Shown: piece after piece, positions 25,750 through 61,573 of the stretch
Layout of the letters: each line of letters opens with the position of its first letter
Numbering within the stretch: position 1 is the first letter of the stretch
Source: a virus
Virus record (IMG/VR): IMGVR_UViG_3300045978_000284
Location: 44,432-108,431 of that record
Direction: 5' to 3' (one strand)
DNA length: 64,000 nt
Program-made: the position numbers and the translations under genes
Notes under the pieces: generated by a model
Told to the model about the DNA's origin: nothing
The model's database searches: none
What the model saw: only the letters and a program-made list of their open reading frames with translations

Positions 25750-26360
25750 TCCCCGCGGCGGAGGCCGCGGTGGTGGCCCGGCTCCTGCTGCGCGGGTCGG
25801 CGCTGGACGCCTACGCGGCCCACGCGAGCGGCTGGCTCGCGGATCGGCTGCCGGCCTTCGAGGCGGAACTGCGGTCCAACCAGGAGGACGAGCGCCGCCA
25901 TGCAGCCATCCAGGCCGAGCTGGCGGTCAGGCTCGACCCGGAGTGCCGCCCGGACGGTCAGGCCAGGCTTCTATTCGCCTCGTGGCGGGCCTGGGAGGCT
26001 CCAGGACGGCTCCTGATGCTGCACCTGGTTGAACGCATCGCCATGCTCTCGTTCGAGGTCCTGGGGCGGCGCCTGCGCCAGCTGGGGGCGCTGGACGAGG
26101 CACTCGCGGTCCTCGACATCGCCCGGGACGAGCGTCGGCACGTGCGGACCGGGCGGGACGCCCTCCTGGCAATCGGGCCGGTCCCCGCGGCCGCCGGCGT
26201 GTACCAGGCCATCCGGTCGGTGTACGCGGCGGATCCGCTCCTGGAGGTGGAGGCTCCGCGGGTCCTGGGAATCGGCCGGCTCACGGAGCTGGGTGACAGG
26301 GTGTGGGCCCGGTGGCAGAATGCTCGCGCGGGGAGTCTGGGAGACCACGGTGGCCCATAA
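25746..26360 (+). CDS. Ferritin-like four-helix diiron protein, copy 1
   Basis: 204 residues from the GTG at 25746, overlapping the previous stop; a longer upstream opening is out-of-frame overlap. Four long helices carry ferritin-like metal motifs: E49-D-E-R-R-H52 in helix 2, E96 (LVERIAML) in helix 3 and E129-R-R-H132 (IARDERRHVR) in helix 4. In helix 1 the expected Glu is Ser-18 (RGSALDAY), whereas the paralogue at 26729 has Glu-18 at the same spacing. It could therefore bind metal asymmetrically or be a partner subunit. The last codons overlap the tRNA-Met-like gene. Role unknown: iron storage, oxygenase/hydroxylase chemistry or a virion component are possible. Confidence 0.65.
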   Translation: MIPAAEAAVVARLLLRGSALDAYAAHASGWLADRLPAFEAELRSNQEDERRHAAIQAELAVRLDPECRPDGQARLLFASWRAWEAPGRLLMLHLVERIAMLSFEVLGRRLRQLGALDEALAVLDIARDERRHVRTGRDALLAIGPVPAAAGVYQAIRSVYAADPLLEVEAPRVLGIGRLTELGDRVWARWQNARAGSLGDHGGP

Positions 26361-26398
26361 CCATCGAGAAGCGGGTTCGACTCCCGCCCCCGTAACCA
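26327..26398 (+). tRNA. tRNA-Met-like (CAU), short D arm
   Basis: Anticodon arm GGTGG-CCCATAA-CCATC (26349-26365) gives anticodon CAU. Variable loop GAGAA, T arm GCGGG-TTCGACT-CCCGC (26371-26387), 3' acceptor strand CCCCGTA, discriminator A and encoded CCA (26396-26398). The 5' strand CGCGGGG (26327-26333) pairs with about six of seven acceptor bases. The D arm between them is too short for a standard cloverleaf, and position 33 is C instead of U. It overlaps the end of the upstream CDS. It may be degenerate or unusual. Confidence 0.5.
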
Positions 26399-26401
26399 GC
26401 T

Positions 26402-26476
26402 CGGGGCGTGGCGCAGAGGGAGCGCGCCTGGCCTGGGACCAGGAGGTCGCCGGTTCGAGTCCGGCCGCCCCGACCA
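26402..26476 (+). tRNA. tRNA-Pro (UGG)
   Basis: Full cloverleaf: acceptor CGGGGCG/CGCCCCG, D stem GCGC/GCGC, anticodon stem CCTGG/CCAGG with loop CCTGGGA (anticodon UGG), variable AGGTC, T arm GCCGG-TTCGAGT-CCGGC, discriminator A and encoded CCA at 26474-26476. Position 33 is C rather than the near-universal U, as in its neighbour. The next ORF starts one base after the CCA. Confidence 0.85.
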
Positions 26477-26477
26477 C

Positions 26478-26690
26478 ATGAAGGTCACCCAGTTCACGGC
26501 GGACCGCTCGGTCGAGGGCCAGATCACCTACCGGATCGACCTGGACGACGCCACCTTCCGCGAGCTGGTGTCCCTGAACCTGGACCAGCGCCCGATGGTG
26601 GCCGAGCTCTGGCGGGACTACGAGACCGACCAGGTGGAGATCTACACCGAGGACCAGCTCTGGGGCCGCCTGTCGGCGGTGCCTGTCTGA
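26478..26690 (+). CDS. Small unknown acidic protein
   Basis: 70 residues, ATG directly after the tRNA CCA end and no ribosome site, so initiation would depend on processing or leaderless-type translation. MKVTQFTADRSVEGQITYRI, then FRELVSLNLDQRPMVAEL. Acidic, mixed alpha/beta. No family recognised. Lies between the two ferritin-like genes. Confidence 0.5.
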   Translation: MKVTQFTADRSVEGQITYRIDLDDATFRELVSLNLDQRPMVAELWRDYETDQVEIYTEDQLWGRLSAVPV

Positions 26691-26728
26691 GGAACCCTCA
26701 AAACCCTCGAAACCATCCGGAGGCTCCC

Positions 26729-27298
26729 ATGCTGACTGACCAGATCCTCCACGGCTTCCTCTGGGACCAGGCGCGCGGCGAAGCCATCGGCCTTGGGCGG
26801 TTCGTGTACCTGCGGCGGAGCACCCGGCTCGGCGTCGAGGACCGGCAGCTCCTTGAGCGGCGGCTCGTAGACGAGGTGAACCACGGGGCCTGGCTCACGG
26901 CCCGGGCGCGGCACTACGGCCCGCGTCCTGTCCAGGGCGGCCCGGTCTGGGACACCTGCGAGCGGGACTACCACGGCCAGGTCGCCGGCGCGATCAGCCC
27001 GGAGGAGATGCTGGTGTACGCATACCTCCCGGAGCGCTTCGCCACCAGGGTCCTGCAGCGGGCCGCCGGCGACGTCCGGGTGCACGGCGACCGGGAGACG
27101 GCCGACCTCCTGGACCAGCTCGTCCTGGACGAGCAGCGCCACGTCCGGGAGAACGGCGCCCTCCTGCAGCGCTGGGTGGCCGACCCGGAGATCGGCCCCG
27201 GGATCCGGGCCGCCTGGCACGCAGCACTCCGGGGGAACTACCACAAGTCCCTGTTCTCGGCGCCCCTGCCCGTCGGCCAGCTCCCAGCCCAGCCATAG
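26729..27298 (+). CDS. Ferritin-like four-helix diiron protein, copy 2
   Basis: 189 residues from the ATG at 26729 after CCGGAGG; an upstream in-frame opening overlaps the tRNA and is rejected. It has a complete carboxylate diiron set: E18 in helix 1 (RGEAIGLGRF), E49-V-N-H52 in helix 2, E102 in helix 3 (LPERFATRVL) and E135-Q-R-H138 in helix 4 (LDEQRH). Spacing of E49/H52 is identical to copy 1. The architecture fits the ferritin-like superfamily (ferritin, rubrerythrin, MiaE-type hydroxylases). Its place beside tRNA genes makes tRNA hydroxylation one option; nothing fixes the substrate. Confidence 0.7.
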   Translation: MLTDQILHGFLWDQARGEAIGLGRFVYLRRSTRLGVEDRQLLERRLVDEVNHGAWLTARARHYGPRPVQGGPVWDTCERDYHGQVAGAISPEEMLVYAYLPERFATRVLQRAAGDVRVHGDRETADLLDQLVLDEQRHVRENGALLQRWVADPEIGPGIRAAWHAALRGNYHKSLFSAPLPVGQLPAQP

Positions 27299-27342
27299 CA
27301 GTCGGACCCAGTCGTACCCAGTCGGACCGGGTCCGACTGGGT
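27299..27342. repeat. Tandem decamers ending in a perfect palindrome
   Basis: Directly after the ferritin-like stop codon: CAGTCGGACC, CAGTCGTACC, CAGTCGGACC in tandem, then one G and the inverted copy. ACCCAGTCGGACC-G-GGTCCGACTGGGT is a perfect inverted repeat (27316-27342). It could be a terminator-like hairpin (no T tract) or a protein-binding site. Confidence 0.7.
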
Positions 27343-27600
27343 CTCGGCAAGCCAAGCCAAGCCAAGCCAAAGCCATAGCGTAGACGTAGGCGGCGCGAAA
27401 ACTGGAAGGTGGCGCCGCGTCCGCGTCCGCTCCGCTCCGCGCGCGCAAGGCGCCCGGAGCTTCGCGGGCGGAGCCCGGTCGGCCGCTGGCGCGGCGTAGA
27501 CGTAGGCGGCGGGCGGGCGGCGGGCTGGCGCCTGGACCGCGGCCCGCGGCCGCCGGTGCCCGGACCGCGGCGAAAAAACGTCGCGCCGTCGGTTCACCCC
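27343..27600. repeat. Repeat-rich non-coding region 1
   Basis: No convincing gene. Contains five near-tandem AGCCA words (27350-27376), then CGTAGGCGG at 27385 and 27501, each preceded by GTAGA. The first is followed by GGCGC...GGTGGCGCC, matching the shell of the promoter cassettes at 35077 and 39445 but without a good -35 box, so it looks like a decayed cassette. The remainder is CG-rich with several short palindromes. Confidence 0.6.
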
Positions 27601-27638
27601 TTGACACCTGTATCTCCCCGTGCGACATTGAACACATG
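27601..27638 (+). promoter_or_regulatory. Promoter with start codon at +1 (copy J)
   Basis: TTGACA (27601-27606), 17-base spacer, GACATT (27624-27629); the ATG of the next gene begins 7 bases after the -10 box, at the predicted transcription start. This is the closest to consensus -35 in the set. Confidence 0.65.
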
Positions 27639-28196
27639 CCGCACATGACGCGAATCGCCACTAACGCCCATGTGACGCGCGCGCCGTTCCCCGCGCGCAC
27701 TCCGCGCGCTACCGACTGCGAAATGACAATGCCGCGACTGAACCCGACCGCCGCCGCTCCCACGTCCGCCGCTCCCACGTCCGCCGCTCCCACGTCCGCC
27801 GCCGCCGTTGCCGCCGCAACGATCTGGCGCGAGCGGATGGAGCGGTACCTCGCCTCCGCCCGCGCCGATGCTGATCTGATCGCGGCGCGCCTCGGCGCCG
27901 AGCGCGCGATTCTCAAGTCCCTGCCCGCGACCTCGCCCGCACGCGACGATGTTGACCTCCGCGTGCGACGCCTCGCCGTTCGCCATGCCCGCGCTACCGA
28001 CCTCGTTTCGCGCCGCGTCGGCTGGCTTGAGCGCGCGACCGACGCGCTCAATCGCCTCGCGCCTCCGCCTCCGCCCGCGCGCCGCTCGCGTCCCACGTCC
28101 GCCAAACCCCGCCGCTCGCGCCCGACCTCCGCGCCCGCGCCCGCGCCCGACACCGCGCCCGCGCCCGCGCCCGCGCCCGAACCCGCCACCGTCTAA
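27636..28196 (+). CDS. Unknown Ala/Pro-rich helical protein
   Basis: 186 residues from the ATG at 27636, located at the predicted transcription start; a second in-frame ATG is at 27726. N-terminus low-complexity with three APTSA units encoded by CCCACGTCCGCCGCT-type repeats. Core about 63-140: TIWRERMERYLASARADADL and RRVGWLERATDALNRLA, helical. C-terminus is an Ala-Pro array. The core matches, by eye, the protein at 35236 (W-R-x-RM-x-x-Y ... WL-x-RA), which is also driven by a cassette promoter. Function unknown; nucleic-acid binding is possible given the Arg/Lys/Pro tail. Confidence 0.6.
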   Translation: MPHMTRIATNAHVTRAPFPARTPRATDCEMTMPRLNPTAAAPTSAAPTSAAPTSAAAVAAATIWRERMERYLASARADADLIAARLGAERAILKSLPATSPARDDVDLRVRRLAVRHARATDLVSRRVGWLERATDALNRLAPPPPPARRSRPTSAKPRRSRPTSAPAPAPDTAPAPAPAPEPATV

Positions 28197-28531
28197 CCCG
28201 CCTCACCGGGGGCGCGCGCGCGGAGTGCGCGCGCCCCTCCACTACTCGCCGCGTGACGACTACCCGGTAGACGTAGGAGTACTTCGTAGACATTCGTAGG
28301 CGGCTGGCGGCTGGCGGCTCGGCCCGGCAGCGCTGGCGGCAGCCCAGGACCTGGCCCAGGCCAAGGACCTCGGCGCCCAGCTCCCGCGCTCCGGCCGGCG
28401 TAGAAACCGTAGAAGCACGTAGGAGTACTTCGTAGACATTCGTAGGCGGCTGGCGGCTGGCGGCTCGGCCCCTGGCGGCTGGCCATCGGCCAAGCGGCCA
28501 AGCCCCGCCCCCAGCCCGGCCCCGGCCCCGC
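28197..28531. repeat. Repeat-rich non-coding region 2 with 55-bp direct repeat
   Basis: Contains a perfect 55-bp direct repeat at 28271-28325 and 28417-28471, starting ACGTAGGAGTACTTCGTAGA and including CGTAGGCGG and three GGCTGGC units. Around it are further GTAGA and GGCCAAG words. No gene seen on either strand; the reverse frames are open only because of composition. Confidence 0.75.
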
Positions 28532-28569
28532 TCGCAACCCGGCGGTGACACCGATACCTTATCACCATG
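28532..28569 (+). promoter_or_regulatory. Cassette promoter with GATA-N3-TATC operator (copy A)
   Basis: TCGCAA (28532-28537), 17-base spacer containing GGCGGTG, TACCTT (28555-28560). The palindrome GATACCTTATC (28553-28563) covers the -10 box. ATG at 28567 falls exactly 7 bases after the -10 box and is in frame with the gene at 28648. Confidence 0.7.
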
Positions 28570-28575
28570 CGCCCG

Positions 28576-28620
28576 CGTGCCGACCGTGCCGACCGTGCCG
28601 ACCGTGCCGACCGTGCCGAG
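28576..28620 (+). repeat. Tandem 9-bp repeat in leader
   Basis: Five tandem copies of CGTGCCGAC (last ends in G), between the cassette promoter and the ribosome site at 28634. If translated from the ATG at 28567 it would encode a repeated Arg-Ala-Asp tripeptide. Confidence 0.8.
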
Positions 28621-28647
28621 GCCGCAAGTCCACAGGAGGAGGCGACG

Positions 28648-28929
28648 ATGCCGATGACGGCGACTGACCTGGAAAACCTGGAGACCAACGTGGCGGAGCG
28701 ACGGAAGGTGGCCCAGTCCCAATTCAACAGGCTGTGGGAGGCGCTCGAGGAGGCAGCGACCGCGCCCCAGGCGCTGGTGTCGGGCCGGCTCGAAGCGGTG
28801 GCGCGCGCGCAGGAGGTGCTCAAGGACAGCCTGAACGCGGCGCAGGGCAAGGTCGCCGGCGTCCGGCTCCACGGCCAGCCGGTGCTCCGCAGGCCCCAGC
28901 GGGTGTACGACGCCGAGCGGTTCGCCTAA
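28648..28929 (+). CDS. Small unknown helical protein
   Basis: 93 residues from the ATG at 28648 after CAGGAGGAGG. An alternative in-frame start at 28567, at the predicted transcription start, would add a 27-residue repetitive leader. Helical: NLETNVAERRKVAQSQFNRL and RLEAVARAQEVLKDSLNAAQ, basic end RRPQRVYDAERFA. No family recognised. It is the only gene between two repeat-rich regions. Confidence 0.6.
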   Translation: MPMTATDLENLETNVAERRKVAQSQFNRLWEALEEAATAPQALVSGRLEAVARAQEVLKDSLNAAQGKVAGVRLHGQPVLRRPQRVYDAERFA

Positions 28930-29200
28930 GGCGGCTGGCGGCTGGCGGCGCGCGGGCCGGCTCTCGGCCCGCGGCGCCTACGAGCCAAGCAGGCGGCAGG
29001 CGGGCAGCGGGCGGCTGTCGGATCTCAGCTCGGACAGCTCTCCCGGGCTCGCCGAAATTCCAGGCGCCGGCCAAGCCATTCGGGCAGAGCCAACGGCGCG
29101 GTCGCGGCAGGACGAGACCAGTCGAGCGGCGTAGGCGGCGCCGAAATTCCAGGCGCCGGCCAAAGCCATCAGCACCCAATCAGCTCGGCGCCGGCCTCGC
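28930..29200. repeat. Repeat-rich non-coding region 3
   Basis: No gene seen. Starts with GGCGGCTGGC units, has a 24-bp direct repeat GCCGAAATTCCAGGCGCCGG-CCAA at 29051-29074 and 29140-29163, and CGTAGGCGG at 29130. The second repeat copy sits inside a GGCGCC...GGCGCC inverted repeat. Confidence 0.7.
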
Positions 29201-29238
29201 TCGCAACCTGGTGGTGACACCGATACCTTGTCACCATG
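29201..29238 (+). promoter_or_regulatory. Cassette promoter (copy B)
   Basis: TCGCAA (29201-29206), 17-base spacer with CTGGTGGTGACACC, TACCTT (29224-29229), degenerate palindrome GATACCTTGTC (29222-29232). ATG at 29236, exactly 7 bases after the -10 box and in frame with the gene at 29323. Confidence 0.7.
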
Positions 29239-29322
29239 TCGCCATGTCTCTACCTCGCCACGACGCCACGACGCGCGACCACCGCGCGCGAGCTGGCGAC
29301 AAATCCCCGAGTGGAGGCGCCA

Positions 29323-30015
29323 ATGTCCGACACGTTTCTCGAACAGCACTTCACACCCACCGAGCGGCGCTCGATCCGTGCCGCGGCGCGCGAGGTGGCC
29401 CAGCGCCAGCTGCAGGCGCAACGCCACCTGGCGCGCAACCGCTACCGGGCGGGCACGAAGCAGGTTGCCGGGATCTCGGAACTCGGGCTCACGGAGCTCG
29501 AGGTGCGGGCCGGTGTCCAGCGTCTCGACCTCGAACACGCCGCCATCAACTCCGCGCTGGAGGCGGGTGGCGACGTGCGCGCGACGGTGCGCGCGACCAA
29601 GGCGAAAGCGATCGTCACCCACGACCCGAAAGGTGAGGCGGCGGTGATCGACCGCCTCGCCGAGATGGCGGCGGCGCTGCCGCCGACGCTGATCGGCAAG
29701 CTCGCCGCCGAATTGAAGGAGGCCCGTCAGCGTGCCGCCAGGCGGGAGGCCGACATCTTCACCGTGGGGATGATCGTGGTGGTGCCCACCCTGACCATCC
29801 CCTATCCGCCGCGCGCGGGGATCGCGATGGTCGTCGCCAGGAACAAGGCGACCGTCACGATCGAGTACCAGGACGGCGCGCGCGAACGGCGCCGCGTCTC
29901 CCCCGCGTACCTGGAGGCGCCGAAGCAGACGGTGATGCCCCGCAACGCAATCGACGAGCAGGCGCTGATCGCGCACCGGCGCCGCCAACTCTTCCCGACG
30001 GAGGGTGCCCGATGA
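29323..30015 (+). CDS. Unknown protein with C-terminal SH3-like region
   Basis: 230 residues from the ATG at 29323 after TGGAGG; in-frame ATG at 29236 at the promoter +1 is an alternative. Residues 1-165 are helical and rich in Arg/Ala (TPTERRSIRAAAREVAQRQL). Residues about 170-215 form a small beta barrel-like segment: FTVGMIVVVPTLTIPYPPRA, VARNKATVTIEYQDG, VSPAYLEAP. That segment resembles the end of the protein at 39878. No known family. First gene of a run of ATGA-linked genes up to 31382. Confidence 0.6.
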   Translation: MSDTFLEQHFTPTERRSIRAAAREVAQRQLQAQRHLARNRYRAGTKQVAGISELGLTELEVRAGVQRLDLEHAAINSALEAGGDVRATVRATKAKAIVTHDPKGEAAVIDRLAEMAAALPPTLIGKLAAELKEARQRAARREADIFTVGMIVVVPTLTIPYPPRAGIAMVVARNKATVTIEYQDGARERRRVSPAYLEAPKQTVMPRNAIDEQALIAHRRRQLFPTEGAR

Positions 30016-30416
30016 TCAGCTACAACCTCCCCGACGCCGAACGCCAGGCGATCTTCGCCCGGCTCGGCGACATCCGCCGCGACCTCGACCTCATCATGAA
30101 GCGCAAGGACGAGAGCAAGGACCGCGCGTACTGGGCGGCGCGCGACGCGCTGATCGCCGAGCGCGACACCCTGGGCGCCCGGCTCGATGCCTGCGCCGTG
30201 AAGGTGGCCGATCCGCCGCGGCCCACGCCCGCGGCGCAGGCGAAGGCGGCGCTCGCCGACCGCGCGGCCCAGAACGCCGCACGCTGGGCGGTGCCGACCA
30301 AGGCCGCCAGAGCTGCCGCCAGCGAGCAGGCGCTGTTCCACGCCATCGTCGCCGGGGCCGAACGCGAGCTGACGGCGGCGGGCATCCGAAAACTGATCGA
30401 GCGGCTGGCGCAATGA
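30012..30416 (+). CDS. Unknown coiled-coil protein
   Basis: 134 residues overlapping the previous stop by ATGA. N-terminal coiled coil (ERQAIFARLGDIRRDLDLIM, then RDALIAERDTLGARLDACAV), Ala-rich linker, C-terminal helix AAGIRKLIERLAQ. No family recognised; translationally coupled to both neighbours. Confidence 0.6.
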   Translation: MISYNLPDAERQAIFARLGDIRRDLDLIMKRKDESKDRAYWAARDALIAERDTLGARLDACAVKVADPPRPTPAAQAKAALADRAAQNAARWAVPTKAARAAASEQALFHAIVAGAERELTAAGIRKLIERLAQ

Positions 30417-30604
30417 TCGACAAGCCTCCGGTCTGCTCATCCTGCGGCACGCCTGGCGGGATCCGTCGCGCGTACGGAGTGCCCTACGCGGTGTCGCCGT
30501 GCGGAGCGGTGTGGAAATACAACCATCGGTGGGTTCTCGTTCACCAGCACAAAGACTCGCAGCCGAGTGGCGTAGGCGAGCAACGAAAGGTGGTGCGGCC
30601 ATGA
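30413..30604 (+). CDS. Small zinc-knuckle-like protein
   Basis: 63 residues, ATGA-coupled on both sides. Starts MIDKPPVCSSCGTPGGIRRA with a CxxC and a further Cys at about residue 29 (AVSPCGAVWKYNHRW). A three-cysteine pattern plus His suggests a structural zinc site. Unknown function; one of many tiny CxxC proteins in this region. Confidence 0.55.
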   Translation: MIDKPPVCSSCGTPGGIRRAYGVPYAVSPCGAVWKYNHRWVLVHQHKDSQPSGVGEQRKVVRP

Positions 30605-30984
30605 TGATCGTGGACGTTCGGAATCACCTCAAGGCCAAGTGGCCCGACACGCGGTTCTACATCTCGGTGAAGCACCGCGGATCGGCGAACGGCTCGGACC
30701 AGCTGTGCGTGGCCTGGAAGACCGGGCCCGACTGGGTCCAGGTCGAGCGGCACCTGCTCATGATCCTGGCCGGCGACACCAAGTGGGACGAGTTCATCCT
30801 GAGGTCCTGCGACACGGAGGACGTCGAGGCGTACTGGGCGACGATCTGCCTCCGGCACCGCAAGACCATGCTCCAGTGCGAGACCTGCCGCTATGACGAG
30901 CTGTACGACCGGGAGCCGACCGACGACGAGAAGCTGGCGGCCATCATCTTCCCGGACCGGTTCGGTCCTGGAGCGATGCGATGA
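30601..30984 (+). CDS. Unknown protein, possibly LPD29-related
   Basis: 127 residues from ATG 30601 overlapping the previous stop; a longer opening from 30499 overlaps the previous gene and is rejected. MMIVDVRNHLKAKWPDTRFY, then WKTGPDWVQVERHLLMILAG parallels the start of the LPD29-type protein at 47234 (short helix, TRFYISVKHRG strand, W-x-GP, V-x-V). The C-terminus has a CETCRYDELY zinc-like pair. Relationship to LPD29 is tentative. Confidence 0.55.
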   Translation: MMIVDVRNHLKAKWPDTRFYISVKHRGSANGSDQLCVAWKTGPDWVQVERHLLMILAGDTKWDEFILRSCDTEDVEAYWATICLRHRKTMLQCETCRYDELYDREPTDDEKLAAIIFPDRFGPGAMR

Positions 30985-31382
30985 GCGACCCGATCGTGGT
31001 CCGCGCCCGCTCCCAGAAGGTGCGCTGCCGGCGGGTCAAGATCACGCGCGTCAAGGTGGACGGCGCTACGGTCCCGGGCGGCAAGGTGCAGCTGGCCGAC
31101 GGCCGGTGGGTCGAGCACAAGACGGTGGCCCAGGTCGTCGCCGAGCTGGCGGCCGAGCAAGGCCACGCGCCCTGGCAGCCGACGATGCGCCAGAAGAAGC
31201 CCAAGGCGGCGGCGCCCGCCCCGCCGCCGGCGCCGCCGACCTGGCGCCAGGAGATCAGGAAGGCGTCCAGCGGGCGGACGACGGCGTTCGCGGCGGCGTT
31301 CGTGCTGGCGAGCGGCGTAGGCGGTGCCGCGCGTCGTGGTAGCAGTCCCGCTCCGCCGGCGCCGCTTGCGACCCGGTGGTGA
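30981..31382 (+). CDS. Unknown basic protein
   Basis: 133 residues, ATGA-coupled to the previous gene. Residues 1-50 are a Lys/Arg-rich beta region (VVRARSQKVRCRRVKITRVK, GKVQLADGRWVEHKTVAQVV); then Ala/Pro-rich linker. The last 25 residues are encoded by the CGTAGGCGG cassette edge and the -35 region of promoter C. In the neighbouring frame the cassette TAG would have ended the protein earlier, so a recent frameshift near 31300 is possible. Confidence 0.5.
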   Translation: MSDPIVVRARSQKVRCRRVKITRVKVDGATVPGGKVQLADGRWVEHKTVAQVVAELAAEQGHAPWQPTMRQKKPKAAAPAPPPAPPTWRQEIRKASSGRTTAFAAAFVLASGVGGAARRGSSPAPPAPLATRW

Positions 31383-31403
31383 CACCGATACGTTATCACC
31401 ATG
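31366..31403 (+). promoter_or_regulatory. Cassette promoter with operator (copy C)
   Basis: TTGCGA (31366-31371), 17-base spacer with CCGGTGGTGACACC, TACGTT (31389-31394), palindrome GATACGTTATC (31387-31397). An ATG starts at 31401, exactly 7 bases after the -10 box; the next ATG at 31409 is in frame with the gene at 31481. Confidence 0.75.
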
Positions 31404-31480
31404 TCGCCATGCTCTGTCCGCGCGCACCAATGCCATCCCGCCCCGGGCCATGGCGACAACTCTCCCAGGAGGAGGTGCCG

Positions 31481-31687
31481 ATGTACGTCGAGCCGAACTA
31501 CCCCACCAAGAAGGCCCTGAAGACGGCGGTGGCCGCCGGCAAGGAGGTCTTGGTCTTTCACCCCGGGATCGGGCGGGAAATCCGCGACGGCGAGCACGCC
31601 GTCGAGGGGCCGCACTACCCGAAGCCGCACACCTGGTACGCCAGGGTGCGGGTGAAGGACTGCCGGGTCGAGAAGGTCATCAGCTGA
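31481..31687 (+). CDS. Small unknown protein
   Basis: 68 residues from the ATG at 31481 after CAGGAGGAGG. EPNYPTKKALKTAVAAGKEV then HPGIGREIRDGEHAVEGPHY and a short beta end. The phrase around GPHYPKPHTWYA is the kind seen in small phage proteins of unknown role. Promoter C drives it. No motif. Confidence 0.6.
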   Translation: MYVEPNYPTKKALKTAVAAGKEVLVFHPGIGREIRDGEHAVEGPHYPKPHTWYARVRVKDCRVEKVIS

Positions 31688-31700
31688 TTGGAGACTTCAG

Positions 31701-31728
31701 GCCGGCCCCTCTGCAGTCCGGGGCCGGC
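31701..31728. terminator. Hairpin between small genes
   Basis: Perfect 9-bp stem GCCGGCCCC/GGGGCCGGC with 10-base loop, 13 bases after the previous stop and 38 before the next start. No T tract. Possible terminator or attenuator. Confidence 0.45.
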
Positions 31729-31766
31729 ATGGTCCGCTGTGCCAGACACAGCCATAGGAGGAGCAC

Positions 31767-31883
31767 ATGAGGAACGGAGACGGGCTCAGGAAGCGGAAGT
31801 CGGGAACGTTCGCGGTGGCGTTCGGGCGCGCGCTGGATGCGATGGCGCTGGCCATCTGGTCCGAGCTGATCGACAGGTCATAG
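31767..31883 (+). CDS. Small peptide, 38 residues
   Basis: MRNGDGLRKRKSGTFAVAFG then a helix ALDAMALAIWSELIDRS. Strong TAGGAGGAG ribosome site and an equally strong TAGGAGG directly after its stop for the next gene support translation. Function unknown; a basic N-terminus and an amphipathic helix. Confidence 0.5.
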   Translation: MRNGDGLRKRKSGTFAVAFGRALDAMALAIWSELIDRS

Positions 31884-31893
31884 GAGGACACCA

Positions 31894-32217
31894 ATGGCGG
31901 AGAAGAAGCGGAGCCTCGAGCAGGTGCGCAAGGCGGGGCCGGAGGCGTTCGTCATGGACGCCATCGTCCGGCTCCGGACCGGCAACTACACCGGCATCCA
32001 CACGGTGTACAGCGGCTTCAACGCCGCGTTCCGGGAGGTGTTCCCGGACGTGGACCCCGTGCAGTTCACCCGCGAGCTGTCGGAGGCCGGGAAGCTGGTG
32101 ATCAAGCCGATCCGTGGCGGGGCGCTCATCACGCGACGGCAGGACTGGAAGGGCGAGCTGCCGGTCAGCACGGTCGAGCGGCAGAAGCGCGCCCTGTCGG
32201 CGCTCAACATCGGGTAG
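31894..32217 (+). CDS. Unknown protein, possible winged-helix fold
   Basis: 107 residues. Pattern helix-helix-helix-beta hairpin: LEQVRKAGPEAFVMDAIVRL, AAFREVFPDVDPVQFTREL, then EAGKLVIKPIRGGALITRRQ, which looks like the wing of a winged-helix protein. A DNA-binding role is possible but not established. TAGGAGG precedes the ATG. Confidence 0.55.
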   Translation: MAEKKRSLEQVRKAGPEAFVMDAIVRLRTGNYTGIHTVYSGFNAAFREVFPDVDPVQFTRELSEAGKLVIKPIRGGALITRRQDWKGELPVSTVERQKRALSALNIG

Positions 32218-32227
32218 GAGGAAGGAC

Positions 32228-32743
32228 ATGAACACGGTGACTGTCATGCCATGCCGCCGCGCTCTGGCTGGGCTACAGAGCCTCGCCGAGCGGGCGAGGC
32301 TCGATCTGCAGGTCCTCGGGGTGCATCGCCCCGAGGTGAAGTCCGAGTTCGGCGACACGGATCGGATCATCCGCGTCGCCATCGGGGGCCTCGACGGGCC
32401 GCAACGCCGGGCGCTCCTGGCCGCGACCCTGATCCTCCACCGCACGGTGGGCGGCCGGGCGGAGTGGCGGATCGACCCCGCCACGTCCGCTCTGACGGTC
32501 CTGTCGTCGGACCCCGACCGCCAGAGCGAGGGATCCGTGGCGTCGCTCTCGGAGGTCGAGGAGTCCCTCGACCTCGAGCCCCGGGTGACCCCCGAGGGGG
32601 TCACCGTCATGTCGCAGCGCCGGGAGGGGGCGTTGCTGCGGGACCAGATCGTGGCCCGCGTGCTGGGCGAGTTGGCGGCCCAGTATGTGGAGAGCTGGGC
32701 CAGTGAGGAGGAGCACGAGGAAGCGCCGAATCATGGCTCGTAG
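32228..32743 (+). CDS. Unknown protein
   Basis: 171 residues from ATG 32228 after TAGGAGGAAGG. Mixed alpha/beta: LAGLQSLAERARLDLQVLGV, VAIGGLDGPQRRALLAATLI, GRAEWRIDPATSALTVLSSD, then a Ser/Glu-rich linker and a C-terminal helix (LLRDQIVARVLGELAAQYVE). No family recognised. Confidence 0.55.
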   Translation: MNTVTVMPCRRALAGLQSLAERARLDLQVLGVHRPEVKSEFGDTDRIIRVAIGGLDGPQRRALLAATLILHRTVGGRAEWRIDPATSALTVLSSDPDRQSEGSVASLSEVEESLDLEPRVTPEGVTVMSQRREGALLRDQIVARVLGELAAQYVESWASEEEHEEAPNHGS

Positions 32744-32933
32744 GCTCCGTCCGATCGCAGCGCCGGAACCGTACCGCACCGCCCTGGTGCCGGCCAGTCC
32801 CGTGAAGGTGGTGCACCTGCGGGTCGAGCGGTCGTCCCAGGCGCTCTGCGGCGTCGTCGTGCGGCCGGCGGCCCCGATGGTCCGCGGCCGCCTGGCGTGC
32901 CCGCGATGCTTCCGGGCTGCGGAGGGAGGGTGA
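32733..32933 (+). CDS. Small CxxC protein
   Basis: 66 residues from the ATG at 32733 overlapping the previous stop by 11 bases. PYRTALVPASPVKVVHLRVE, a lone Cys in ALCGVVV and a C-terminal LACPRCFRAAEGG. Likely one zinc-binding pair with a distant Cys; unknown role. Confidence 0.5.
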   Translation: MARRLRPIAAPEPYRTALVPASPVKVVHLRVERSSQALCGVVVRPAAPMVRGRLACPRCFRAAEGG

Positions 32934-33088
32934 TGGACGACCCGCGAGTCCTCGTCTTGGTGATCGGCGCGACGAACGATCGGCCAGTCCCCCGCTTCGT
33001 GGCGGGCGTGGTCGTAGGCGCGCTGATTTGTGGCGCCGGTCTTCTGATCCTGCGCCTGGCGATCCTCATGATGCCGTGCGCGCACTAG
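32933..33088 (+). CDS. Small single-pass membrane protein
   Basis: 51 residues from ATG 32933 (TGATG overlap). One long hydrophobic segment FVAGVVVGALICGAGLLILR to LAILMM. No charged soluble domain. Could be an inner membrane phage protein, but it lacks lysis-gene neighbours. Confidence 0.55.
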   Translation: MDDPRVLVLVIGATNDRPVPRFVAGVVVGALICGAGLLILRLAILMMPCAH

Positions 33089-33104
33089 GAGGCAGGAGGC
33101 TTAG

Positions 33105-33188
33105 GTGAGACAGCACTGTCCCTGGCGCCGCGTCGACAACGGAAAGCGCACCACGCTCAGGACCCACAGGCTGGGTCGGAAAGGATAG
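33105..33188 (+). CDS. Possible basic micropeptide
   Basis: 27 residues from a GTG: MRQHCPWRRVDNGKRTTLRT and onward, strongly basic. GCAGGAGG lies upstream at good spacing, and its stop is 2 bases before the next ATG. Could be a leader ORF or spurious. Confidence 0.35.
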   Translation: MRQHCPWRRVDNGKRTTLRTHRLGRKG

Positions 33189-33190
33189 CG

Positions 33191-33667
33191 ATGAAAACAC
33201 AGATTGCGTGCCCCCTGCCGATGCCCTACCCGCTCGACTGGATGCCCTGCGGCCAACCCATGGTCCTGGCCATCGACACCGGCGATCCCTCGGTCGGCAT
33301 CTTCGGCTCGTATCTGGAGGAGGTGGACGGCGAGTGCCCGCACGTGGGCGCGGTCAACATGTGCATCGCCACGAGCGAGGACTGCGCGGCCCAGGAGGCG
33401 ACGGACTGGTCCGAGAAGCTGCAGGCCCAGGAGCGGATGGTCATGCGCGCCATGTGGGAGGAGCTGTCCGTCGAGCTGGACCGCGAGAACCAGCCGAGCG
33501 CCGAGGAGCTGGCCATGCTCGCCATGTACGAGGGGTCACCAGCCGGCGGCTGGTTTGACGAGGCCGGCAACCCGGTCAACGTCGGCGAGTCCGCCGGCCG
33601 TTGCCTGGACTGCGGCGGCCCGCTCGGCGACTACGACCAGTGCCTGAACAACTGCGAGCGGTCGTAG
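33191..33667 (+). CDS. Unknown protein with C-terminal zinc-like motif
   Basis: 158 residues. N-terminal half with several Cys (CPLPMP, MPCGQPM, GECPHVGAVNMCIATSEDCA), central acidic helix (ERMVMRAMWEELSVELDREN), end CLDCGGPLGDYDQCLNNCE. The C-terminal CxxCG and C-x4-C pairs look zinc-binding. No family recognised. Confidence 0.55.
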   Translation: MKTQIACPLPMPYPLDWMPCGQPMVLAIDTGDPSVGIFGSYLEEVDGECPHVGAVNMCIATSEDCAAQEATDWSEKLQAQERMVMRAMWEELSVELDRENQPSAEELAMLAMYEGSPAGGWFDEAGNPVNVGESAGRCLDCGGPLGDYDQCLNNCERS

Positions 33668-33669
33668 CC

Positions 33670-33897
33670 ATGGCGGTCCAGTTCTGGCTGATGGACGGGA
33701 GAGCGCCTCGGTGGGACGGCGCGACCATCGACCCCTACGACGTCCCGGACGGCCTCGGGCTGCTGACGGTCTCGGAGTCGTTGCTGGAAGCCAAGGGCGA
33801 TCGCGACAGCGGCGCCTTCGGCGATGGCCTGTTCATCGCGGAGGCCACATTCGACGAGCGCAGCTGGCGGCTGCGCCTGCTGTGGAACGAGCGATAG
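33670..33897 (+). CDS. Small unknown protein
   Basis: 75 residues from ATG 33670, 2 bases after the previous stop. Beta-rich: AVQFWLMDGRAPRWDGATID, FIAEATFDERSWRLRLLWNE. No motif. Ends with a TAGGAGGAG ribosome site for the next gene. Confidence 0.5.
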   Translation: MAVQFWLMDGRAPRWDGATIDPYDVPDGLGLLTVSESLLEAKGDRDSGAFGDGLFIAEATFDERSWRLRLLWNER

Positions 33898-33907
33898 GAG
33901 GAGATAC

Positions 33908-34405
33908 ATGAACCAGGCAGCCATGCTCAGGGTCGCCGGGGAGATCCCGGCACAGTTCTCTCGTCGTCTGGAGCGGCTCCACCCGACCGCCACGCCGGTG
34001 CTGCGCGACGGGATCAGAGAAGTCACGATGGAGAGCGGCGTCGACGACGACATCAGCGCCGCGCTCTTCGAGCTGATGGCGGAGCTCGAGGACAAGAAGG
34101 TGTCGTTCGACTGCTACTTCGGCGCGAGCCTGTACTTCCAGGAGGGCGTGCCCACGCCGATCGCCGAGTGCATGGGCGGTCTGCGGTGCTCGCGCGGCGG
34201 TCAGTCCTCCTACTTCGTCTCCGGCGGAATCCCCTGCACCGCGGTCGGCGAGCTGCCGGTGCGCGACGTCCCGGAGATCAGCGGCGTGTTCCTGTCGTGG
34301 GCGGACCTGAAATTCGTGGAAGACGCGATCAGCGCCGGACGTCCGGGTGCGGCGCTTCAGCGGCTCGATCTCCTGGCGGGCCGTCACGTCCAGCCGTTGG
34401 CGTAG
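33908..34405 (+). CDS. Unknown protein
   Basis: 165 residues from ATG 33908 after GAGGAG. EIPAQFSRRLERLHPTATPV, FELMAELEDKKVSFDCYFGA, FVSGGIPCTAVGELPVRDVP. Mixed fold with an internal CSRGGQSSYF turn. No family recognised. Confidence 0.5.
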   Translation: MNQAAMLRVAGEIPAQFSRRLERLHPTATPVLRDGIREVTMESGVDDDISAALFELMAELEDKKVSFDCYFGASLYFQEGVPTPIAECMGGLRCSRGGQSSYFVSGGIPCTAVGELPVRDVPEISGVFLSWADLKFVEDAISAGRPGAALQRLDLLAGRHVQPLA

Positions 34406-34409
34406 AGCC

Positions 34410-34652
34410 ATGGGCACGATCCTGACCGGAGAAGGCATCTACCTGTTCCGGATCCTCGCGCTGCGCGGCGCCGTCCAGCTGGAGGCCAAGGGCATCCGGT
34501 TCAAGCGCAGCATGACGGCGCAGGCCAAGCGGGAACTCGGCCTGCCGAAAGGAACCAAACGCGAGAAGGTGCTGGCGGCGCTCGACGTGGCGGTCGAGGC
34601 CCAGAAGCAGGTGACCAGGCCCGGGATCGACGTCCGCAGCACCGAGGCATAG
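34410..34652 (+). CDS. Small protein of a common phage unknown type
   Basis: 80 residues. TGEGIYLFRILALRGAVQLE followed by GIRFKRSMTAQAKRELGLPK: a hydrophobic helix then a basic helix. This resembles a small protein I recall seeing in many phages, with no described function. It is coupled to the gene before by a 4-base gap. Confidence 0.55.
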   Translation: MGTILTGEGIYLFRILALRGAVQLEAKGIRFKRSMTAQAKRELGLPKGTKREKVLAALDVAVEAQKQVTRPGIDVRSTEA

Positions 34653-34661
34653 GAGGAGCAC

Positions 34662-35081
34662 ATGGGAGCGGACTTCATCATCCGAGCGGTCAGCGTCGCC
34701 CCGCCAGGTCGGCCGCTGGACTGGGAGGCCGGGACGGCACTACTGCAGACGCTGCGCAACCTCCCGATCTCTCAGTGGCCGGAATCCCTCACGGACTGCG
34801 AGGCCGGCACGTCGCCGGCCGACGGCCAGGAAGACGACGTCGACCGCAAGCAGATCTTCGGGTCGGTCGAGGCCATGATGGCCACCATCCGCAGCATCCA
34901 CGAGACCGTGGCCGGTGACTTCGAGTTCGACCGTGAGCTGGTCTGTCTGCAATACCCGGATCGCCACATCTACATCGTCGGCGGCATGTCCTGGGGGGAC
35001 GATCCCACCGAGGCGTACCGCGCGATGGCGCGCTTCATCGACTCGGGCATCGCCGACGCGATCGGCTTCGATTCGGCGTAG
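34662..35081 (+). CDS. Unknown protein
   Basis: 139 residues after TAGGAGGAG. FIIRAVSVAPPGRPLDWEAG, an acidic segment, then VEAMMATIRSIHETVAGDFE and RHIYIVGGMSWGDDPTEAYR. The latter half resembles small phage proteins that start with a W-G-D-D-P-x-(D/E)-x-Y pattern. The stop TAG is part of a CGTAGGCGG cassette element. Confidence 0.55.
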   Translation: MGADFIIRAVSVAPPGRPLDWEAGTALLQTLRNLPISQWPESLTDCEAGTSPADGQEDDVDRKQIFGSVEAMMATIRSIHETVAGDFEFDRELVCLQYPDRHIYIVGGMSWGDDPTEAYRAMARFIDSGIADAIGFDSA

Positions 35082-35170
35082 GCGGCACGCCAATGCGCGG
35101 CGGCGCCGACGCCCGGCGCGCCTTGCAACATGGTGGCGCCCCGCGCACACTGTCACCATGACGATATATC
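35077..35170 (+). promoter_or_regulatory. Cassette promoter with GATATATC element (copy D)
   Basis: CGTAGGCGG at 35077 overlaps the upstream stop. TTGCAA (35123-35128), 17-base spacer with TGGTGGCGCC, CACACT (35146-35151), then GTCACCATG with the ATG at 35158, 7 bases after the -10 box and in frame with the gene at 35236. GATATATC at 35163-35170. GGCGC...GGCGCC flanks the -35 box. Confidence 0.65.
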
Positions 35171-35235
35171 CATACCGCGCCGCGATCGCCGCGGCGCCCT
35201 GTGCAGCGCACCCCACACCAGAAGGAGACAGCTTC

Positions 35236-35709
35236 ATGGCCACGAAGACGAAGGCGACCAAGACGCAGGCACCCGAGCCCGAGGCGGTGCTCAAGGCGCG
35301 GTCCTGGAGGACCCGGATGGTTCTGTACCGCGACGCCTCGAAGAACAAGATCGCGGAGATCGAGGCGGCCCTGGTGGCGATGCGGCAGGAGCCCAAGACG
35401 CCCGAGCAGGGCGTCCGGGTGGCCACCGCCGAGCTGCGCCTCAAGAAGCAGCGGGAGCACCTCGCCCGCCGCGAGGACTGGCTGAAGCGCGCCGACACGT
35501 CCCTGGCCGGCGCCATCGCCAAGGGCGCGACGCCCAAGGCGCCGGGCAAGGCGGTGGCGGTGGCTGCGCCGCCGGCGCCGATCGAGAAGAAGAAGCCGCG
35601 CAAGCCCAAGGCGAAGGCGCCGGTCGTGGAGCCGCCGGCCGGGCCGGTGGAGACGCTCGAGGTCCCGCCGGTCGAGCCGACCCAGCCCGCCGAGGAGGTG
35701 GCCGCCTAG
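35236..35709 (+). CDS. Unknown Lys/Pro-rich helical protein
   Basis: 157 residues from ATG 35236 after AAGGAGA; in-frame ATG at 35158 is possible. Core about 20-100 (RSWRTRMVLYRDASKNKIAE, REHLARREDWLKRADTSLAG) matches the core of the protein at 27636. C-terminus Lys/Pro/Ala-rich (KKKPRKPKAKAPVVEPPAGP). Both paralogues lie directly behind cassette promoters. Possibly nucleic-acid associated, judged only from composition. Confidence 0.6.
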   Translation: MATKTKATKTQAPEPEAVLKARSWRTRMVLYRDASKNKIAEIEAALVAMRQEPKTPEQGVRVATAELRLKKQREHLARREDWLKRADTSLAGAIAKGATPKAPGKAVAVAAPPAPIEKKKPRKPKAKAPVVEPPAGPVETLEVPPVEPTQPAEEVAA

Positions 35710-35752
35710 CACCCCCGGCGCGGCCGGTTCTTGTCAGCCACAGCCCAACAGC

Positions 35753-35776
35753 GCCGGGGGCCCCAGCGCCCCCGGC
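35753..35776. terminator. Hairpin between genes
   Basis: Stem GCCGGGGG/CCCCCGGC with 8-base loop, located between the stop at 35709 and the ATG at 35793. No T-run. The ribosome site GAGGAGG follows immediately, so it may also modulate initiation. Confidence 0.4.
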
Positions 35777-35792
35777 AGAGGAGGAACCGCCA

Positions 35793-36377
35793 ATGGTCAT
35801 CCGATCCCAGTTCCCCAGCCAGTGCACCCTTTGCCATAACCCCGTGGTTGTCGGTGCCCAGGTCGACTGGACCAATGGCGTCGGCGTCACCCACCATCCG
35901 GCCGGTAGCTGCCCGCCGCCCGCCGAGCCTGCGCCGGAGCGCACCCAGGACGCCAGCGGGATCGTCGCGTTCCTGACCGCGGCCCAGTCCCGCGGCCTGA
36001 AGTTCCCCAAGGTCCGGTTCCTGGCGCCTGACCGCCGCCGCGAGCTGCGTCTCTCGGTCTCCGGCGCCCAGAGCCGCGTCCCGGGCTCGGTGCAGGTCAC
36101 CCTCGGTCGGGAGTGGATCGGTCGGATCGAGCCCACCGGCGCGATCCGCGGCCGCCTCGCCAACGAGAAGGCGGTGCTCGACGAGCTGGAGGCCATAGCC
36201 GCGGATCCTGCCGCCAAGGCCGCGGAGTACGGCGCCCTGATGTCCCGGTGCTCGTTCTGCGGCCTCGCCCTGACGGACCAGGGCAGCATCGAGGTCGGGT
36301 ACGGTCCGGTGTGCGCCCAGAAGTACGATCTGCCCCACCGCTCCCTCGGGACGCGCGTGGTGCGGGTGGCCAGCTGA
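35793..36377 (+). CDS. DUF6011-like zinc protein
   Basis: 194 residues from ATG 35793. N-terminal CTLCHNP with a further CPPP. Middle part is a beta domain (RRELRLSVSGAQSRVPGSVQ, GREWIGRIEPTGAIRGRL). C-terminal CSFCGLALTD-x-x-S-x-x-x-GYGPVCAQKY is the four-residue zinc pattern of DUF6011 domains, in which a CxxC pair and a later GYGPxC complete the site. Such proteins are common in phages and helicase-like proteins; the role is unknown. Confidence 0.65.
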   Translation: MVIRSQFPSQCTLCHNPVVVGAQVDWTNGVGVTHHPAGSCPPPAEPAPERTQDASGIVAFLTAAQSRGLKFPKVRFLAPDRRRELRLSVSGAQSRVPGSVQVTLGREWIGRIEPTGAIRGRLANEKAVLDELEAIAADPAAKAAEYGALMSRCSFCGLALTDQGSIEVGYGPVCAQKYDLPHRSLGTRVVRVAS

Positions 36378-36904
36378 TGGCCCGCCGGGAACAGGTCTTG
36401 TTGTCGGCCGGCCCGAACAACGCTCGGGTCCATGCGTCCGTGGTCCGGGTCAGGTTCACCGTGGATCGCGGCGTAGGCGGCCCGCACGTCGGCCACCTCC
36501 TGTCAGATGCGTCCCTGGCGTCGAACCTGTCGCGCCAGCTGATCCCGGACGACGGGCGGGAGCACTTCGGCGTGTTCCTGCTCGGCGCCACCAACAGCCT
36601 GATCCGCTGGCACGAGGTGGCGATCGGCACGACGGGGGCCTCGCTCGTCGAGCCGTCGTGCGTGTTCGGGCCGGCGCTTCGACTGCTGGGCGTGCGCTCC
36701 CTCATCATGGTGCATTCCCACCCGAGCGGCGACACGGACCCGAGCCGTGAAGACATCGAGCTGACCCAACGGCTCATCAAGGTCGGCGACCTGGTCGACA
36801 TCAAGGTCCTGGACCACGTCATCATCGGGTTCCCGGATCGCTACACGTCCCTGCTGCAGGACGGCCGAGCCTTCTTCGGCCGGAACGGGAACCGTCATGC
36901 CTAA
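36377..36904 (+). CDS. RadC-like JAB/MPN domain protein
   Basis: 175 residues from ATG 36377 (TGATG overlap). The motif HSHPSGDTDPSREDIELTQR (about 115-134) is the JAB/MPN+ metal-binding signature (H-x-H, downstream S and D) as in RadC. GVFLLGATNSLIRWHEVAIG precedes it, as in RadC-like proteins. A zinc-dependent hydrolase fold is expected; the substrate is unknown, possibly DNA-related as for RadC paralogues carried by mobile elements. Confidence 0.75.
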   Translation: MARREQVLLSAGPNNARVHASVVRVRFTVDRGVGGPHVGHLLSDASLASNLSRQLIPDDGREHFGVFLLGATNSLIRWHEVAIGTTGASLVEPSCVFGPALRLLGVRSLIMVHSHPSGDTDPSREDIELTQRLIKVGDLVDIKVLDHVIIGFPDRYTSLLQDGRAFFGRNGNRHA

Positions 36905-37567: not shown

Positions 37568-37576
37568 GACTGAGCG

Positions 37577-37789: not shown

Positions 37790-37791
37790 CC

Positions 37792-38685: not shown

Positions 38686-38694
38686 GAGGACCCA

Positions 38695-39440: not shown

Positions 39441-39444
39441 GCGG

Positions 39445-39507
39445 CGTAGGCGGCGCGCCTTGCAATCCGGTGGCGCCGCCCGCACACTGTCTCCGTGATG
39501 ATATATC
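39445..39507 (+). promoter_or_regulatory. Cassette promoter with GATATATC element (copy E)
   Basis: CGTAGGCGG at 39445, TTGCAA (39460-39465), 17-base spacer with CCGGTGGCGCC, CACACT (39483-39488); a GTG begins at 39495, 7 bases after the -10 box. GATATATC at 39500-39507. Nearly the same sequence as copy D over the core. The SD-led gene starts at 39539. Confidence 0.65.
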
Positions 39508-44816: not shown

Positions 44817-44854
44817 TTGAACCGTGGCGGCCGTAATGATACGTTATCACCATG
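44817..44854 (+). promoter_or_regulatory. Cassette promoter with perfect operator (copy F)
   Basis: TTGAAC (44817-44822), 17-base spacer with CGTGGCGG, TACGTT (44840-44845). Perfect inverted repeat TGATACGTTATCA at 44837-44849 covers the -10 box. The gene starts at the ATG 44852, exactly 7 bases after the -10 box, with no room for a ribosome site: a leaderless message. Confidence 0.75.
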
Positions 44855-61462: not shown

Positions 61463-61477
61463 CTGGCGTAGGCGAGA

Positions 61478-61505
61478 GGCCAGCACGGTTCCCGCCGTGC
61501 TGGCC
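61478..61505. terminator. Terminator-like hairpin
   Basis: Perfect 11-bp stem GGCCAGCACGG/CCGTGCTGGCC with loop TTCCCG, 15 bases after the stop and just before the DUF488 promoter. It is followed by GTCAATACTGAT rather than a T run. Best terminator candidate in the window. Confidence 0.6.
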
Positions 61506-61514
61506 GTCAATACT

Positions 61515-61573
61515 GATATATCCTCAGCGATTCCCCTTGCGTCCTGGTGGTGCCCGACTGATAATAAATCATG
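61515..61573 (+). promoter_or_regulatory. Cassette-like promoter before DUF488 gene (copy I)
   Basis: GATATATC (61515-61522), TTGCGT (61537-61542), 17-base spacer with CCTGGTGGTG, GATAAT (61560-61565). ATG at 61571, 6 bases after the -10 box, followed 31 bases later by the ribosome site of the DUF488-like gene. Best -10 box of the set. Confidence 0.7.

What the first reader, a model, noticed from the sequence alone, without database searches (positions are those of the whole stretch)
27299..29322. Two kilobases of repeat-laden intergenic DNA around two small genes
Includes tandem decamers with a 27-bp palindrome (27299-27342), AGCCA repeats, a perfect 55-bp direct repeat (28271/28417), a 24-bp direct repeat (29051/29140) and four or five CGTAGGCGG elements, several in decayed promoter shells. 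This is the only such region in an otherwise packed genome; it may be a replication origin, recombination hot spot or promoter nursery.
Basis: seen in the sequence. Interest (0 to 1): 0.55.

Follow-up and report, generated by a model that had tools for sequence, protein, structure and literature searches.

The report
Cluster of repeated phage early promoters
The repeat-rich stretch is most likely the control region at the start of a bacterial virus's non-structural gene block, where the same promoter cassette with its control boxes has been copied several times; the kind of thing is known, though these exact motifs look new.

Summary
The repeats are real. The window is bases 44432-108431 of a 108,431-base phage contig, and 27299-29322 is its most repeat-dense 2 kb (100 repeated 14-mers; shuffles mean 0.19, maximum 5). 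The repeats are mostly control elements. Three copies of a promoter-like cassette lie here, and five more lie downstream, all on the + strand. The cassette is TTGCRA-N17 (with GGYGG in the spacer)-NAnnnT-N6-ATG. Six of the eight rank first of all positions when left out of the matrix; the other two rank 3 and 16. CGTAGG lies within 120 bases upstream of 7 of 8. GC-rich hairpins follow the upstream genes. The stretch lies between the structural genes and a block coding Ku, RadC, ligase, RecT, exonuclease and ParB-like proteins. I read it as a cluster of early or middle promoters, with CGTAGGCGG as a probable regulator site (inferred). The origin reading has little support: a window-local skew minimum nearby, but no contig-wide extreme, AT-rich element or DnaA box. 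'Decayed promoter shells' were not found. The first 'small gene' codes weakly. No relative covering the region was found. Repeated oriented intergenic motifs are known in actinobacterial phages; this is a new member of that kind.

The parts
27299..27350 (+). tandem decamers and GC-rich hairpin (27-base palindrome 27316-27342) directly after the stop codon of gene 26729-27298; likely transcription terminator without U tail
   Evidence: -33.2 kcal/mol over 27299-27350
27348..27375 (+). CAAGC/AGCCA short tandem repeat
27378..27393 (+). GCGTAGACGTAGGCGG box pair (CGTAG at 27379 and 27385)
27494..27509 (+). GCGTAGACGTAGGCGG box pair (CGTAG at 27495 and 27501), 100 bases upstream of the next -35
27601..27638 (+). 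promoter cassette 1: TTGACA-N17-GACATT-N6-ATG (most diverged copy in the stretch; no GGYGG)
   Evidence: left-out score 9.0, rank 3
27636..28196 (+). open frame of 186 aa starting at the predicted +1; Ala/Pro-rich; coding status doubtful
   Evidence: no phage match
28208..28238 (+). GC-rich hairpin after that frame
   Evidence: -31.4
28271..28325 (+). first copy of the 55-base direct repeat, with CGTAG at 28272, 28285, 28295
28399..28449 (+). array of five CGTAG (28399, 28408, 28418, 28431, 28441; spacing 9, 10, 13, 10) ending in CGTAGGCGG
28417..28471 (+). second copy of the 55-base direct repeat
28532..28569 (+). promoter cassette 2: TCGCAA-N17-TACCTT-ATCACC-ATG
   Evidence: left-out score 43.4, rank 1
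28648..28929 (+). small gene (93 aa) with AGGAGGAGG ribosome site, 81 bases after the predicted +1
   Evidence: no phage match
28947..28978 (+). GC-rich hairpin after that gene
29050..29074 (+). first copy of the 25-base direct repeat
29130..29138 (+). CGTAGGCGG box, 71 bases upstream of the next -35
29139..29163 (+). second copy of the 25-base direct repeat
29201..29238 (+). promoter cassette 3: TCGCAA-N17-TACCTT-GTCACC-ATG
   Evidence: left-out score 46.9, rank 1
29323..30015 (+). gene (230 aa) downstream of cassette 3, 87-base leader
   Evidence: no phage match
31316..31403 (+). CGTAGGCGG box and promoter cassette 4 (-35 at 31366)
   Evidence: rank 1
35077..35160 (+). CGTAGGCGG box (its TAG is the stop codon of gene 34662-35081) and promoter cassette 5 (-35 at 35123)
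   Evidence: rank 1
39445..39497 (+). CGTAGGCGG box and promoter cassette 6 (-35 at 39460), GTG at +1
   Evidence: rank 1
44817..44854 (+). promoter cassette 7 without a box; the ATG at +1 is the start of gene 44852-45088 (leaderless)
   Evidence: (rank 1)
61467..61573 (+). CGTAGGCGA box, perfect terminator-like hairpin 61478-61505, promoter cassette 8 (TTGCGT-N17-GATAAT)
   Evidence: (left-out score 3.5, rank 16)

Best explanation
The stretch is the transcription control region at the boundary between the phage's structural gene block and its rightward non-structural (early or middle) block. Each small unit has the same plan. A GC-rich hairpin ends the upstream transcript. One or more CGTAGGCGG/CGTAG boxes follow, in one orientation. 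Then comes a promoter of the host housekeeping type, with an extra conserved GGYGG in the spacer and a start codon at the predicted +1. A short leader with a ribosome site leads into a small gene. The visible repeats are the copied parts: the promoter cassette (about 60-90 bases), the boxes, and local duplications of 55 and 25 bases. Host RNA polymerase most likely starts at these promoters, and a phage or host DNA-binding protein reading the boxes, the spacer motif or both switches the set together. Shown: the repeats, cassette conservation, single orientation, box-promoter association, hairpins. Inferred: promoter activity, timing, the binding protein, terminator activity.
For: A matrix from six seeds finds 7 sites on the + strand at 30-56 bits, with the next site in either strand of 108 kb at 8.5 bits. 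When left out, 6 of 8 cassettes rank first; 27601 ranks 3 and 61537 ranks 16. All eight carry A and T at positions 2 and 6 of the -10 with a 17-base spacer; ATG or GTG follows after 6 bases in seven and 5 in the eighth. CGTAGG lies within 120 bases upstream of 7 of 8, against a mean of 0.13 and maximum of 3 in 20,000 random placements. BLAST joins cassette 3 to cassette 2 (89% over 63) and to cassette 4 (87% over 63), and weakly to cassette 5 (70% over 91, E 0.004). Several of the contig's strongest hairpins lie right after stop codons in these gaps. Genes 28648 and 29323 have leaders of 81 and 87 bases and ribosome sites. The left neighbour block is structural and the right one codes Ku, RadC, ligase, RecT, exonuclease and ParB-like proteins. 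No sigma factor (PF04542) was found in the contig.
Against: A strict sigma-70 consensus scan of 26400-45200 finds none of these sites (0 found; shuffles mean 0.6) and no U-tailed terminators at the hairpins; the -35 and -10 hexamers match the E. coli consensus only partly. Cassette 8 was picked by eye and its box took part in recognising it. Cassette 7 has no box. Five of 16 CGTAGG sites lie away from any cassette. The box-to-promoter distance varies from 15 to 100 bases, which does not fit a simple contact activator. The 120-base limit was set after seeing the data, and the control placed promoters anywhere, not only in gaps. Hairpin z-scores are weak for several gaps. No relative of the region was found, so conservation between phages is untested.
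Confidence: 0.72

Rival explanations
1. It is a replication origin: CGTAG repeats act as iterons for an initiator and the hairpins take part in strand opening.
For: Five CGTAG in 47 bases with 9-13 base spacing; non-coding, repeat-rich; the cumulative GC skew of the window is lowest near 29-31 kb.
Against: Contig-wide skew extremes lie elsewhere and third-position skew does not turn here. Most GC-rich part of the window, no AT-rich element, no DnaA-type box. The same boxes recur singly at promoters 2-32 kb away. No polymerase A or DnaB-type helicase was found in the contig, so the replication system is unknown.
Confidence: 0.08
2. The boxes are stoperator-like or operator sites of a repressor: one protein bound at oriented sites between genes shuts off transcription.
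For: Asymmetric 9-mer, 10 of 10 in transcription direction, in or at the edge of intergenic gaps in most cases.
Against: Sites lie upstream of promoters rather than within transcribed units; no integrase (PF00589) in the contig; no repressor recognised. The contig may be incomplete.
Confidence: 0.1
3. The repeats are only debris of gene and promoter duplication (local slippage and recombination), with the boxes as hitch-hiking flank and no function of their own.
For: Perfect 55-base and 25-base duplications at short distance; cassettes are clear duplicates of each other; in cassette 5 the box overlaps a stop codon; box distance varies.
Against: CGTAGG keeps its sequence while the bases between box and promoter differ in sequence and length, and it is found at 7 of 8 cassettes.
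Confidence: 0.2
4. Assembly artefact: repeat copies were multiplied or misjoined in assembling the metagenome.
For: No second contig covers the stretch.
Against: The copies are not identical apart from the 55- and 25-base pairs; other parts of the contig are matched at 99.99-100% by two other contigs; the same cassette recurs far away in the contig.
Confidence: 0.04

Closest known systems
Cluster O mycobacteriophage promoters and 17-base repeats (Corndog group; PMC4351075, passages read)
   Same: 8-9 predicted SigA-type promoters, some predicted to start exactly at the start codon (leaderless); repeated short motif concentrated in the non-structural right part; also a Ku-like and a ParB-like gene
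   Different: Their repeat is a 17-base palindrome without meaningful orientation and not tied to promoters; ours is an asymmetric 9-mer, all one way, upstream of promoters. Sequences differ.
Start-associated sequences and their extended form in Cluster K mycobacteriophages and Cluster EF Microbacterium phages (PMC3203893, PMC7302621, passages read)
   Same: Short oriented motif repeated in intergenic gaps upstream of small genes; in Cluster EF the extended part is centred on GTAGAG, near our CGTAGA/CGTAGG
   Different: Theirs sit at the ribosome site next to the start codon; ours sit 15-100 bases upstream of a promoter. Only four or five shared bases, which may be chance.
Promoter-early stem-loop (PeSL) cassettes of T4-like phages (Arbiol 2010, Comeau 2014: not read; seen only as described and cited in PMC4503421, passages)
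   Same: Repeated units of early promoter plus stem-loop terminator between small genes (details recalled), in a region rich in genes without relatives
   Different: No homology claimed; gene shuffling by these cassettes cannot be tested here without related genomes.
Stoperators of Cluster A mycobacteriophages (PMC9283540, start of abstract in listing; passage in PMC4351075)
   Same: Asymmetric, oriented along transcription, scattered through the genome
   Different: Ours lie upstream of promoters; no repressor or integrase recognised; the stoperator sequence was not compared.

Membership tests
Repeated promoter cassettes of a phage (sigma-70 type) | same promoter sequence with fixed spacer at several places, one orientation, upstream of genes | tested here: met
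   8 sites, 17-base spacer in all, + strand only
Repeated promoter cassettes of a phage (sigma-70 type) | match to sigma-70 consensus | tested here: inconclusive
   A and T at -10 positions 2 and 6 in 8 of 8, but the strict 9-of-12 scan finds none in 26400-45200
Repeated promoter cassettes of a phage (sigma-70 type) | transcription starts there | not testable with these tools
   needs RNA
T4 PeSL cassettes | promoter plus stem-loop terminator in the same gap | tested here: inconclusive
   hairpins in the gaps of cassettes 1, 3 and 8 (z -2.3, -3.1, -4.9) and after the 27636 frame; weak for cassette 2 (z -0.9), not for cassettes 4 and 7 (z near 0), gaps of 5 and 6 too short to test; no U tails
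T4 PeSL cassettes | cassettes flank genes that are swapped between related phages | not testable with these tools
   no related contig covers the region
Stoperators | asymmetric site, one orientation | tested here: met
   10 forward, 0 reverse
Stoperators | bound by an immunity repressor of a temperate phage | not testable with these tools
   no integrase PF00589 in the contig; repressor not identified; binding needs experiment
Start-associated sequences | motif directly before the start codon at the ribosome site | tested here: not met
   the nearest boxes lie 15-100 bases upstream of the -35
Replication origin | skew extreme of the replicon | tested here: not met
   extremes at contig 7295 and 105816; only a window-local minimum here; contig may be incomplete
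Replication origin | AT-rich unwinding element and initiator boxes | tested here: not met
   lowest 100-base GC 0.59 in region, no DnaA-type box; a phage-specific initiator site is not excluded

The most novel reading that the evidence does not exclude
Every one of these promoters places a start codon at its +1, so each transcript can be read first as a leaderless message and, in most units, again from a ribosome site about 45-90 bases on.
Probability: 0.1. Interest if true: 0.5.

Novelty: new member of a known kind. Interest (0 to 1): 0.27.

Why it matters
It turns an odd-looking repeat patch into a readable control map: eight predicted transcript starts, one recurring box and one spacer motif in a phage for whose control region no relative turned up in the collections searched. 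That gives precise positions to test by RNA mapping. If the boxes prove to be bound by a ParB-like protein, it would link a common but poorly understood phage protein family to transcription control.

Tried and rejected
Origin of replication: skew, AT-rich element and DnaA boxes were looked for; only a window-local skew minimum and the CGTAG spacing speak for it.

Decayed promoters behind the extra boxes at 27385 and 28295: best matrix scores are background-like.

N-terminal extensions from the +1 ATG: in frame with the gene in 5 of 8 cassettes (27636, 28567, 29236, 35158, 44852, with gene starts). The extensions tested at 28567, 29236 and 35158 have non-coding codon scores, so they are read as leaders; only 44852 is convincingly leaderless.

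A common leader structure: RNAalifold on five of the eight leaders gives only 4 pairs, -1.8 kcal/mol. The leaders at 29236 and 31401 share an outer stem (TGTCGCCA/TGGCGACA) with diverged loops, but their fold z-scores are modest.

Known RNA families: only tRNAs (on the window, L009 and L010; L011, contig 40001-46000, was left out, so contig 40001-44431 was not searched).

Relatives: the flanking genes 29323 and 24990 (the latter as a long open frame that my gene calling later split), Ku, ParB and RecT gave none in viral contigs. The capsid gene gave 25 loci: two are the same phage but end before the region. I searched 8 of those 25 records for CGTAGGCGG and none has it. Exact 17- and 20-base promoter cores gave 4 viral and 2 bacterial hits, about what chance gives by my own rough estimate; I did not read their contexts. 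Phage WXIN, best Ku match, shares only Ku with our 154 called proteins at E 1e-5.

Papers: searches. No title or abstract listed there names this motif; this is not proof that it is unpublished.

Full report
What the window is. It is bases 44432-108431 of a 108,431-base virus record from IMG/VR. My own codon-based gene calling gives 154 genes, all on the + strand, covering 88.7%. Left of the finding are structural genes: a portal at contig 27222-30995 and a capsid protein at 4580-5521, with tRNA-Met and tRNA-Pro at 26325-26476. Right of it are many small genes without recognised families, then Ku, RadC, ATP-dependent ligase, RecT, exonuclease, SbcC-like and ParB-like genes. The capsid matches phages of many hosts at up to 36%. 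Ku matches Mycobacterium phages in 80 of 81 records. The portal's best listed matches are Arthrobacter and Gordonia phages. An actinobacterial host is likely but not shown.

The observation. The stretch holds 100 repeated 14-mers, more than any other 2,024-base window of the contig taken every 250 bases; 500 shuffles average 0.19 and never exceed 5. CGTAGGCGG is found 10 times on + and never on - in the contig.

What the repeats are. BLAST of the stretch against the contig shows that the longest imperfect repeat is a promoter-like block: 29181-29243 matches 28512-28573 (89%), 29189-29251 matches 31354-31415 (87%), and 29186-29274 weakly matches 35107-35197 (70%, E 0.004). Aligned, the cassettes read TTGCRA, 17 bases with GGYGG near the start (not in 27601), NAnnnT, six bases, ATG. 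A matrix from six seeds finds seven sites at 30-56 bits, all +, with nothing else above 8.5 bits in 108 kb on either strand after iteration. An eighth, at 61537, was found by eye. In leave-one-out scoring six rank first of all positions; 27601 ranks 3 and 61537 ranks 16, so these two rest on their position, spacing and, for 61537, a near-consensus -10.

Boxes. CGTAGG occurs 16 times forward in the contig. Eight of the 16 lie within 120 bases upstream of a cassette, serving 7 of 8 cassettes; three more lie further up in the stretch; five lie elsewhere. Random placement of eight promoters gives a mean of 0.13 and a maximum of 3 in 20,000 trials. The limit of 120 was set after seeing the distances, the control was not restricted to gaps, and the 61537 cassette was partly recognised by its box; without it the count is 6 of 7. 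In the stretch CGTAG also forms arrays with 6, 9-10 and 13-base steps.

Hairpins. Strong GC-rich hairpins follow the stop codons at 27298, 28196, 28929 and 61462. The scan for U-tailed terminators over 26400-45200 names none of those it covers, and the one at 61478-61505 is followed by GTCAATACTG, so terminator activity is inferred. The gaps of cassettes 4 and 7 have no special hairpin.

Genes. 28648-28929 (93 aa) and 29323-30015 (230 aa) score as coding and have ribosome sites; they start 81 and 87 bases after the predicted +1. 27636-28196 starts exactly at the predicted +1, is Ala/Pro-rich and scores -0.035 per codon, below the 5th percentile (0.111) of called genes; its frame is nevertheless the best of six over its whole length. 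None of the three has a match in 50,697 phage records at E 0.1. A start codon at +1 is present in all eight cassettes (one base nearer in the eighth). It serves as the gene start at 44852, where the frame codes and gives a sub-threshold domain match from residue 4.

Mechanism. The most likely reading is a cluster of three out of eight early or middle promoters for host RNA polymerase, at the entry to the non-structural block, controlled as a set by a factor that reads the boxes or the GGYGG spacer motif. The duplications are the result of copying these units. No sigma factor was found in the contig; the single-subunit polymerase search had no working control and says nothing.

Against the other readings. 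The origin reading has a window-local skew minimum in its favour, but the contig's extremes are elsewhere, the DNA is very GC-rich, and no AT-rich element or DnaA-type box is present. Length variation between isolates could not be tested: two near-identical contigs exist but end before the region.

Known context. Repeated, often oriented, short motifs in the gaps of non-structural genes are known in Cluster O, K, EC, EF and EG actinobacterial phages, with predicted leaderless SigA-type promoters in Cluster O (PMC4351075, PMC3203893, PMC7302621; passages read). Promoter plus stem-loop cassettes are known in T4-like phages (as described in PMC4503421; originals not read). This is therefore a new member of a known kind, with its own sequences. 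The most unusual feature is the tie between one oriented 9-mer and nearly every cassette at variable distance.

Noticed in passing
40236-41102 and 49785-50969: The phage codes a Ku-like end-binding protein and an ATP-dependent DNA ligase, a possible phage-owned end-joining pair; the Ku matches in phage records are nearly all from Mycobacterium phages.
   Followed up: partly
contig 10598-12847 (L009): A 749-aa protein with DAM-like, LAGLIDADG and GNAT-like domain matches: possibly an intein or a fused homing endonuclease in a methyltransferase-acetyltransferase protein.
   Followed up: no
contig 27222-30995 (L010:7222-10995): A 1257-aa protein matching portal, RNA ligase and head maturation protease families along its length; an unusual fusion.
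   Followed up: no
62124-63971; L009:272-1174; L009:12902-13639: Three ParB-like proteins in one phage contig.
   Followed up: partly
35164, 39501, 61516: ATATATCC occurs three times on + in this GC-rich contig: just after +1 in cassettes 5 and 6, and upstream of cassette 8; meaning unknown.
   Followed up: no
contig 1144-1940 (L009): Another CGTAGGCGG lies near the end of a ParB-like gene, followed by a gap of about 765 bases before a helicase gene; no cassette was found there.
   Followed up: partly
26729-27298: Gene next to the tRNAs with a sub-threshold ferritin-like match.
   Followed up: no
29237-29301 and 31402-31458: Leaders of cassettes 3 and 4 keep the same outer stem (TGTCGCCA/TGGCGACA) with different loops, perhaps a 5' stabilising stem.
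   Followed up: partly
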